From contig NAVB01001345.1 in NCBI GenBank assembly GCA_002179805.1, forward strand, positions 1 through 29,538: a stretch of DNA of 29,538 bases, given 5' to 3'. This DNA is from Acanthamoeba lenticulata. Lineage: Eukaryota; Discosea; Longamoebia; Acanthamoebidae. The position numbers were made by a program, and so were the translations under genes. Below, piece after piece: positions 24,170 through 25,127 of this stretch (position 1 is its first letter; every line of letters starts with the position of its first letter). Below the pieces are notes generated by a model. The model saw only the letters and a list, made by a program, of their open reading frames with translations. It did not search any database and was not told the DNA's origin.

Positions 24170-25127
24170 TCAAGAGGATTGGGAGGCGGCCATCTCTGCT
24201 TGATACCTCGCCTTGTCCTGGTTGGCCAGCTCCACAAAGGCGGCCCTGCCCTCTTCGTCTGCTTCGCGCCACCGCTGCCCCAGCACCTTCATCACTTCGG
24301 TGAAGGGCAGGTCCGGACGCTCTCCCTTGATGAGTGACCTGTGATGTTCGCAGAAGAACATGTAAGCCGTCTTGGGCTTCTTGGGCGCCTTCCGTTCACC
24401 TTCGGCCTTGATGGCCGGTGGCTCCTTCTCCACTTCGTGGGCGACCTCTTCCTTCTTCTCGTCATGCTCGATCTCCTTACGCGGTTCGACCTCATCCGAC
24501 GCGGGTACGTTCTCCTTCCTTTCCTCCTCTTCTTCCTCCTCTTCCTCATCTGCAACTTCTTCATCATCATCATCGTCATCATCATCGTCTTCGTCCTCGT
24601 CATCGTCATCATCATTCTCTTGCTCCTCATCAGCGACTCGTGAGTCCTCGAAATGGCTGCAATACTTGGTGATTGCTTTCGTGCCTTCGGAGATGGCGTG
24701 CTTTGCCAGTTCACCTTTCGCGCACCACCAGCAAGACAACCCACGTTCAGCACAAAGTCCATCAACAGGAGACAGCGTCAGCGTCCTCGAGGGGCGTACC
24801 AGGTAAGAGCAGCCGGACGGCCGTCTGTATTTCGCGCGAGCTGATGGTATGCCGTTTGTTGTAGCGGGCCAGCAGGGCTGCCTCCGAAGCGATGCGTTTG
24901 AGCAAATCGTTGACAAAGCTGTTCATGATCACCATGGCGGCCTTCGAGATGCCCAGGTCGGGGTGCACCTGCTTGAGCACCCTCCATATGTAGATCGAGT
25001 AGTTCGCACTGGTCTTCTTCTTCTCCTCCGCCTTGCCCTCGTCGCCGTTCTTCTCCGCTACAATTTGCTCCTCCTTCACTTCCTCAGTCGTTTGGCTGCC
25101 ATCTTGTCCATCTTCCAACGTCGCCAT
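24170..25127 (-). CDS. Histone H2B fused to acidic tract and HMG box
   Basis: Minus-strand exons 25127-24800 and 24714-24170 join in phase to give 290 residues. Residues 1-40 are an acidic tail, unlike the basic tail of normal H2B. Residues 41-130 are a good H2B core: [60 protein letters not shown], then across the intron [19 protein letters not shown]. An Asp/Glu tract (about 137-175, almost pure) and a mixed charged linker lead to an HMG box (about 218-283): [45 protein letters not shown]. It would place an HMG DNA-bending domain on the nucleosome surface. Frame continuity across the acidic region is direct; the only splice needed is inside H2B, at the same place as in the other H2B gene here. 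A gene-merging error is therefore unlikely. Confidence 0.92.

What the first reader, a model, noticed from the sequence alone, without database searches (positions are those of the whole stretch)
24170..25127. Histone H2B fused to an HMG box through an acidic tract
One gene encodes an H2B core with its C-terminal helix, then about 40 nearly pure Asp/Glu residues, then a full HMG box. The acidic tract plus HMG box resembles an HMGB/FACT (SSRP1)-type module attached permanently to a nucleosome subunit. The N-tail is acidic instead of basic. I know of no such standard histone architecture.
Basis: partly seen in the sequence, partly recalled or inferred. Interest (0 to 1): 0.9.

Follow-up and report, generated by a model that had tools for sequence, protein, structure and literature searches.

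The report
Histone H2B fused to HMG box
An Acanthamoeba-type amoeba genome carries two open copies of a gene that joins histone H2B, an acidic stretch and an HMG box (a fold that bends DNA in its relatives) in one protein, which is predicted to build nucleosomes that likely loosen their own DNA; a 2021 review names only one other folded domain attached to a histone.

Summary
One two-exon gene (ATG 25127, intron 24799-24715, stop 24170) encodes 290 residues: an acidic N-tail (net -6; canonical H2B +14), a complete H2B core with its C-terminal helix (74% identical to the organism's canonical H2B over 94 residues), an acidic linker (29 D/E of 31 at 144-174) and one HMGB/Nhp6-type HMG box (Pfam 66.7 bits). 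H2B helix and HMG box share one stop-free exon. A second copy on another contig encodes the same 290-residue architecture with no indel and an identical intron (dN 0.020, dS 0.073), so a frameshift, assembly join or pseudogene is unlikely. The genome is Acanthamoeba-like. A protein search listed one other histone-HMG fusion among its 120 best rows, an H2B-acidic-H2A-HMG transcript from an unnamed EukProt species. [quoted passage not shown] This organism's SSRP1 shows no HMG box (as reported for Dictyostelium, Physarum and yeast), so a box carried by H2B could supply it in cis; that is inference. Expression, deposition in nucleosomes and conservation in named Acanthamoeba species are untested. 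A second, unfused H2B variant 2.2 kb away shares the intron position.

The parts
24800..25127 (-). Exon 1: ATG at 25127; N-tail and H2B histone fold to the first base of the Gly codon of LLLPG
   Evidence: Pfam Histone 25-106
25008..25127 (-). N-terminal tail, residues 1-40, net charge -6 (canonical H2B of this genome +14 over 61 residues)
24715..24799 (-). Intron, 85 nt, GT...AG, phase 1; identical base for base in the second genomic copy
24170..24714 (-). Exon 2: H2B C-terminal helix, acidic linker, HMG box, TGA stop at 24172-24170
24656..24712 (-). H2B C-terminal helix region (residues 111-129, [19 protein letters not shown]); keeps the TKY lysine that corresponds to human H2B K120 (number recalled)
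   Evidence: helix 2-25 of the model, with block pLDDT only 53-68
24521..24613 (-). Acidic tract, residues 144-174, 29 D/E of 31, inside linker 131-217 (net charge -40); coded by imperfect short repeats
24188..24385 (-). HMG box, residues 220-285, HMGB/Nhp6 type
   Evidence: Pfam 66.7 bits; HMGB1 and Nhp6A in the PDB; three-helix model with block pLDDT 88-97
24148..24153 (-). AATAAA motif starting 17 nt beyond the stop; no AATAAA between the ATG and this one
21398..21991 (-). Second, unfused divergent H2B variant: exon 1 21991-21580, intron 21579-21514 at the same codon and phase, exon 2 21513-21398, 175 aa

Best explanation
The gene encodes one continuous protein that joins a complete H2B histone to an HMGB/Nhp6-type HMG box through an acidic linker, and it is predicted to pair with H2A, enter a subset of nucleosomes and there likely bend and loosen the neighbouring DNA. 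Shown here: the continuous frame (given the one predicted splice inside the H2B part), both domains, a second open copy, an overall dN/dS below 1, and an SSRP1 in which no HMG box was found. Inferred: (1) pairing with H2A and deposition, from the conserved core and C-terminal helix; (2) the HMG box reaching linker or entry/exit DNA on its roughly 90-residue tether and bending it, as HMGB1 does; (3) the acidic tract holding the HMG box or the H3 tail as the HMGB1 acidic tail does, or shielding the basic surface of the H2A-H2B dimer, so that such nucleosomes assemble and open easily; (4) supply in cis of the HMG function that FACT lacks in this lineage.
For: Frame and domains. Core 74% identical over 94 residues to the canonical H2B of the genome, with matches through the C-terminal helix to PDB H2Bs. 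Second copy: 290 codons, no indel; 13 nonsynonymous and 11 synonymous codon differences, dN 0.020, dS 0.073; in the acidic/linker part 6 of 10 changed codons are synonymous. HMG box: top PDB row HMGB1 (71.7 bits over two boxes), top single-box natural chain Nhp6A (51.3 bits); the 50 listed of 117 Foldseek matches are HMG-box entries. SSRP1 in both copies reads to a stop after an acidic tail, with no HMG match on its contigs (read by eye, splices presumed); SPT16 present. The same absence is reported for Dictyostelium, Physarum, Tetrahymena and yeast (passage of PMC9864664), with Nhp6 supplying the box in yeast (passages). HMGB1 bends linker DNA, strains the core and binds the H3 tail with its acidic tail (abstract of PMC3902940).
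Against: No transcript or protein data. No FACT-type D/E-x-x-F/Y motif in the linker; F131 is its only aromatic residue. The genome holds several free single-box HMG proteins that could serve FACT (by eye). The N-tail has lost its basic charge. No fusion orthologue was listed from a named species (only proteins of 160-507 aa can be found there), so wider conservation is unproven. dN/dS rests on 26 base differences; taken alone the H2B core (2 nonsynonymous, 1 synonymous codon) and the HMG box (2 and 1) carry too few changes to show constraint, and gene conversion between the copies is possible.
Confidence: 0.55

Rival explanations
1. The protein is not a nucleosome part but an H2A escort: the H2B fold captures H2A, and the acidic linker and HMG box act as a soluble HMGB-like chaperone that is not deposited.
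For: Acidic N-tail and linker of net charge -40 look like histone-chaperone sequence; the stretch before the core is less basic than in canonical H2B; the histone fold is used outside nucleosomes in NF-YB-type proteins (recalled; Pfam CBFD_NFYB_HMF hit of 28.2 bits).
Against: The core, L2 loop and C-terminal helix included, is 74% identical to own canonical H2B, more than escorting H2A alone would seem to need; no D/E-x-x-F/Y motif in the linker.
Confidence: 0.25
2. The locus makes two products: intron retention gives a short H2B without C-terminal helix, and only some transcripts give the fusion, so the fusion is a minor or regulated isoform.
For: The retained intron reads 11 further codons before a stop; the intron is 85 of 85 bases identical between copies, which could mean it is functional.
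Against: The unspliced product would lack the H2B C-terminal helix; the frame stays open through the HMG box in both copies; the neighbouring unfused variant has an intron at the same place.
Confidence: 0.1
3. The HMG box serves targeting rather than nucleosome opening: it recruits the variant H2B to bent or damaged DNA.
For: HMG1/2-type boxes prefer kinked or bent DNA and SSRP1 was found by binding cisplatin-modified DNA (passages of PMC8639466).
Against: No direct evidence; linkage to repair genes was not looked for.
Confidence: 0.08
4. Assembly error, frameshift or pseudogene.
For: The acidic tract is repeat-rich, the kind of place where assemblies slip.
Against: A second contig, C1110, has the same frame, the same length and 96% protein identity in exon 2; no stop or frameshift in either. 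It is the same assembly, not an independent one.
Confidence: 0.02

Closest known systems
macroH2A
   Same: A core histone with a folded domain fused to it; [quoted passage not shown]
   Different: H2A not H2B; macro domain not HMG box; animals only according to that passage
HMGB1/HMGB proteins
   Same: HMGB-type box plus long D/E tract; top PDB row is HMGB1
   Different: One box, not two; acidic tract lies before the box; a histone is attached
Nhp6A (yeast)
   Same: Best-scoring natural single-box chain in the PDB (51.3 bits); supplies the HMG function of yeast FACT (passages)
   Different: Free small protein, no histone, no acidic linker in front
SSRP1 (FACT)
   Same: Acidic region and one HMG box; H2A-H2B biology
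   Different: No SSRP1 body domain, no D/E-x-x-F/Y motif in the linker, lower box score (24.3-34.3 bits)
P0111, H2B-acidic-H2A-linker-HMG transcript of an unnamed EukProt species
   Same: H2B first, acidic linker after it, HMG box last
   Different: Contains a full H2A between; almost no N-tail; HMG boxes 46% identical over 67 residues, tree unresolved; one Trinity transcript, possibly chimaeric
Pandoravirus H2B (viruses of Acanthamoeba)
   Different: No HMG box described there ('HMG' occurs 0 times in that paper); sequences not compared here

Membership tests
Histone H2B | Histone fold of H2B type | tested here: met
   Pfam 80.4 bits; 74% identity over 94 residues to own canonical H2B; single PDB H2Bs to E 1.3e-41
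Histone H2B | C-terminal helix (ELAKHAxSEGTKAxTKY) | tested here: met
   Sequence and alignments
Histone H2B | Basic N-terminal tail | tested here: not met
   Net -6 against +14; so it is a variant, not a canonical H2B
Histone H2B | Incorporated in nucleosomes with H2A | not testable with these tools
   Needs biochemistry
HMGB proteins | HMG box of HMGB type | tested here: met
   HMG_box 66.7 bits, HMGB1 and Nhp6A lead in the PDB, fold; DNA binding itself untested
HMGB proteins | Acidic tail C-terminal to the box(es) | tested here: not met
   Acidic tract 144-174 precedes the box 220-285
SSRP1/FACT | SSRP1 body (SSrecog domain) | tested here: not met
   No such Pfam hit; the SSRP1 genes lie elsewhere
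SSRP1/FACT | D/E-x-x-F/Y H2B-binding motif in acidic region | tested here: not met
   Only DLPF inside the HMG box
macroH2A | H2A core plus macro domain | tested here: not met
   H2B core and HMG box, no macro hit among 9 Pfam families listed

The most novel reading that the evidence does not exclude
A self-opening nucleosome: Acanthamoeba built the Nhp6-like DNA-bending module that its FACT complex lacks directly onto histone H2B, so that depositing this variant marks and pre-loosens chosen nucleosomes without a separate HMG protein. It would be the second folded domain known to be fused to a core histone and the first on H2B.
Probability: 0.3. Interest if true: 0.9.

Novelty: new variant of a known kind. 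Interest (0 to 1): 0.78.

Why it matters
[quoted passage not shown] An HMG box fused to H2B would be a second and would place a nucleosome-loosening activity inside the nucleosome, at fixed dose and position. It also offers a test of what the HMG box of FACT does: in a lineage whose SSRP1 seems to have none, deleting the box from H2B should show whether nucleosome reorganisation needs it in cis.

Tried and rejected
Orthologue searches: the full protein against 5.8 billion proteins gave 3010 matches, 120 listed, of which 1 (P0111) carries both PF00125 and PF00505; the other 2890 were not shown. HMG region alone: 2 matches from 19 candidates, neither with a histone domain. P0111 as query: 3083 matches, 120 listed, none but P0111 itself with PF00505. 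can find only proteins of about 160-507 aa, so a shorter or longer gene model in another Acanthamoeba would be missed. Viral contigs: no relative; one search gave 3 loci with the same match, of which I read 1 (L062): its frame is not a histone, so I treat the hits as spurious. Genome contigs (prokaryotes): none. These scans start from short exact patterns and reach close relatives only.

HMG-box tree of 16 rows: 0 of 13 inner branches supported, so the origin of the box is undecided. It used 11 of the 21 HMG matches (this box and 10 others); second copies and the boxes of L002/L003, L043/L045 and L044 were left out. 18S identification failed because the server was busy each time; the organism was placed by actophorin instead. 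That 1AHQ is from A. castellanii, and that the window's 5S rRNA looks like that of Acanthamoeba, are recalled. The AlphaFold model covers residues 111-290 only, from 4 sequences; linker and H2B helix have low confidence, so it supports nothing beyond the HMG fold. Viral origin from pandoravirus H2B (acidic N-tails) was considered; no pandoravirus sequence came up, so it is untested.

Papers: of ten answered searches, eight (17 with 0 papers, 18, 32, 33, 47, 61, 80, 81) looked for histone fusions or variants and two for FACT and HMGB1 background. No listing showed a histone-HMG fusion; I saw listings, not texts, for most, and the library lacks most subscription journals. Seen further: passages of PMC8639466, PMC9864664, PMC13365592 and PMC4751559; abstract and outline of PMC3902940; passages plus section 8 of PMC9145170; passages plus section 9 of PMC8015243.

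Full report
What is there. The window's minus strand holds a two-exon gene: exon 1 25127-24800, an 85-nt GT...AG intron 24799-24715, exon 2 24714-24170 with a TGA stop. The 290-residue product has a Histone match at 25-106 (80.4 bits, cut-off 26.4) and an HMG_box match at 220-285 (66.7 bits, cut-off 25.4). The splice gives [22 protein letters not shown], which the canonical H2B of the same genome reads in one exon. Reading through the intron meets a stop after 11 codons. Because the H2B C-terminal helix, acidic tract and HMG box share one stop-free exon, the link from H2B helix to HMG box does not depend on a predicted splice.

Anatomy. Residues 1-40: tail of net charge -6 (canonical: +14 over 61). 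Residues 41-134: H2B core and C-terminal helix, 74% identical over 94 residues to canonical H2B. Residues 131-217: linker of net charge -40, with 29 D/E of 31 at 144-174. Residues 218-290: HMG box region, net +2. The D/E run is coded by imperfect short repeats. An AATAAA starts 17 nt beyond the stop; none lies between the ATG and that point. A model of residues 111-290 gives a three-helix HMG fold with block pLDDT 88-97 and a disordered linker. Foldseek gives 117 matches; the 50 listed are HMG-box entries and the 3 at E <= 0.001 are HMGB boxes.

Which HMG box. In the PDB by sequence (63 matches, 60 shown) the top row is HMGB1 with 71.7 bits over its two boxes (box B alone 42.5). The best natural single-box chain is yeast Nhp6A, 51.3 bits; TFAM reaches about 50; SSRP1 boxes reach 24.3-34.3. 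In the same genome the closest box by BLAST among those compared is the one of L001, 45% over 67 residues.

Second copy. Contig C1110 carries a second copy (L009, ATG at 143), 97.3% identical over 1134 bp; the stretch beyond is 88% identical over 1438. It encodes 290 residues without an indel, with an identical intron. Nonsynonymous and synonymous codon differences: all 13 and 11; N-tail 5 and 3; H2B core 2 and 1; acidic/linker 4 and 6; HMG 2 and 1. Overall dN 0.020, dS 0.073. So the ratio below 1 comes mainly from tail and linker; core and box have too few changes to say. Other genes also come in similar pairs by eye (C7/C320, C72/C1620), though SPT16 showed one match; the copy may be an allele or a homeologue. 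It is another contig of the same assembly, not an independent species. The low divergence of the gene against its flank fits constraint or gene conversion; I cannot separate them.

Organism. Its actophorin exon is identical in 80 of 84 residues to PDB 1AHQ 'ACTOPHORIN'. That this entry is from Acanthamoeba castellanii is recalled. So: Acanthamoeba or a near relative.

Surroundings. A second divergent H2B variant lies at 21991-21398 on the same strand, with an intron at the same codon and phase (Gly of LLPG) and an ordinary end without an HMG box. The canonical H2B genes read lack this intron. The simplest reading is a local duplication of an intron-bearing H2B variant, one copy of which gained the acidic tract and HMG box (inference). 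Of 24 histone-family matches in the genome, 2 sit directly upstream of one of the 21 HMG matches: this gene and its second copy. Both lists are lower bounds.

Relatives. Among the 120 listed of 3010 protein matches, 1 has both domains: P0111, 406 aa, a EukProt Trinity transcript read as H2B - acidic linker - H2A - linker - HMG box. Its HMG box is 46% identical over 67 residues; a tree of HMG boxes is unresolved, so common origin or convergence is open. A search from P0111 showed no second case in its 120 listed rows. [quoted passage not shown] No listed row bore the name Acanthamoeba; for A. castellanii that could mean absence, a gene model outside 160-507 aa, or strong divergence.

How it most likely works. 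The conserved core argues that it still pairs with H2A and can enter nucleosomes (inferred). HMGB1 binds linker DNA next to the nucleosome, bends it and transmits strain to the core, while its acidic tail binds the H3 tail (abstract of PMC3902940). Fused to H2B by a linker of about 90 residues, an HMG box would be held beside the DNA of its own nucleosome. FACT gives a second frame: SSRP1 of this genome reads to a stop after an acidic tail in both copies, with no HMG match on either contig, and SPT16 is present (the SSRP1 end was read by eye with presumed splices). The same SSRP1 form is reported for Dictyostelium, Physarum, Tetrahymena and yeast, with Nhp6 supplying the box in yeast (passages). 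Supply in cis by this H2B is possible but not needed, since the genome has several free single-box HMG proteins (by eye). Against a FACT-like dimer cap stands the absence of the D/E-x-x-F/Y motif from the linker.

Novelty. [quoted passage not shown] Eight paper searches aimed at histone fusions or variants listed no histone-HMG fusion. I file it as a new variant of a known kind (histone variant with a fused domain), with an architecture that is new as far as I could see. What is missing is expression and biochemistry.

Noticed in passing
window 21398-21991 (-): A second divergent H2B variant (32.7 Pfam bits, 175 aa) with the same intron position as the fusion gene and no HMG box: the two look like old tandem duplicates.
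   Followed up: partly
window 22162-22280 (-) and 22442-22553 (+); 6361-6432, 6507-6588, 8952-9023 (-): 5S rRNA and U6 snRNA genes sit between the two H2B variants, with three tRNA genes (Arg, Leu, Arg) further away in the window.
   Followed up: no
L049 and L050 (G000:C72, C1620): Both SSRP1 copies read to a stop after an acidic tail without an HMG box, as reported for Dictyostelium, Physarum and yeast.
   Followed up: yes
L030, L031, L032 (G000:C739, C1261, C1224) and L033 (C275): Further H2B-type genes with a short basic tail and other introns (MARKKRIVPVTQK...), and another divergent one in L033: H2B looks diversified in this genome.
   Followed up: partly
P0111 (EukProt): A transcript-derived protein reading H2B-acidic-H2A-HMG in one chain, from an unnamed species; if not chimaeric, a single-chain H2B-H2A dimer with an HMG box.
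   Followed up: partly
window 22673-24148 (-): Downstream neighbour is a PB1-domain protein (49.4 bits); this stretch is only 88% identical in the second copy against 97% for the H2B-HMG gene.
   Followed up: partly
window about 25252-26100 (-): Upstream neighbour looks like a LanC-type protein from its WCHG and CHGISGN motifs (recalled, not tested); it ends about 125 bp before the H2B-HMG start codon.
   Followed up: no
PMC13365592: Melbournevirus proteins cross-link to an amoebal 'HMG box domain-containing protein' (passage); whether that host protein is related to this one was not checked.
   Followed up: no
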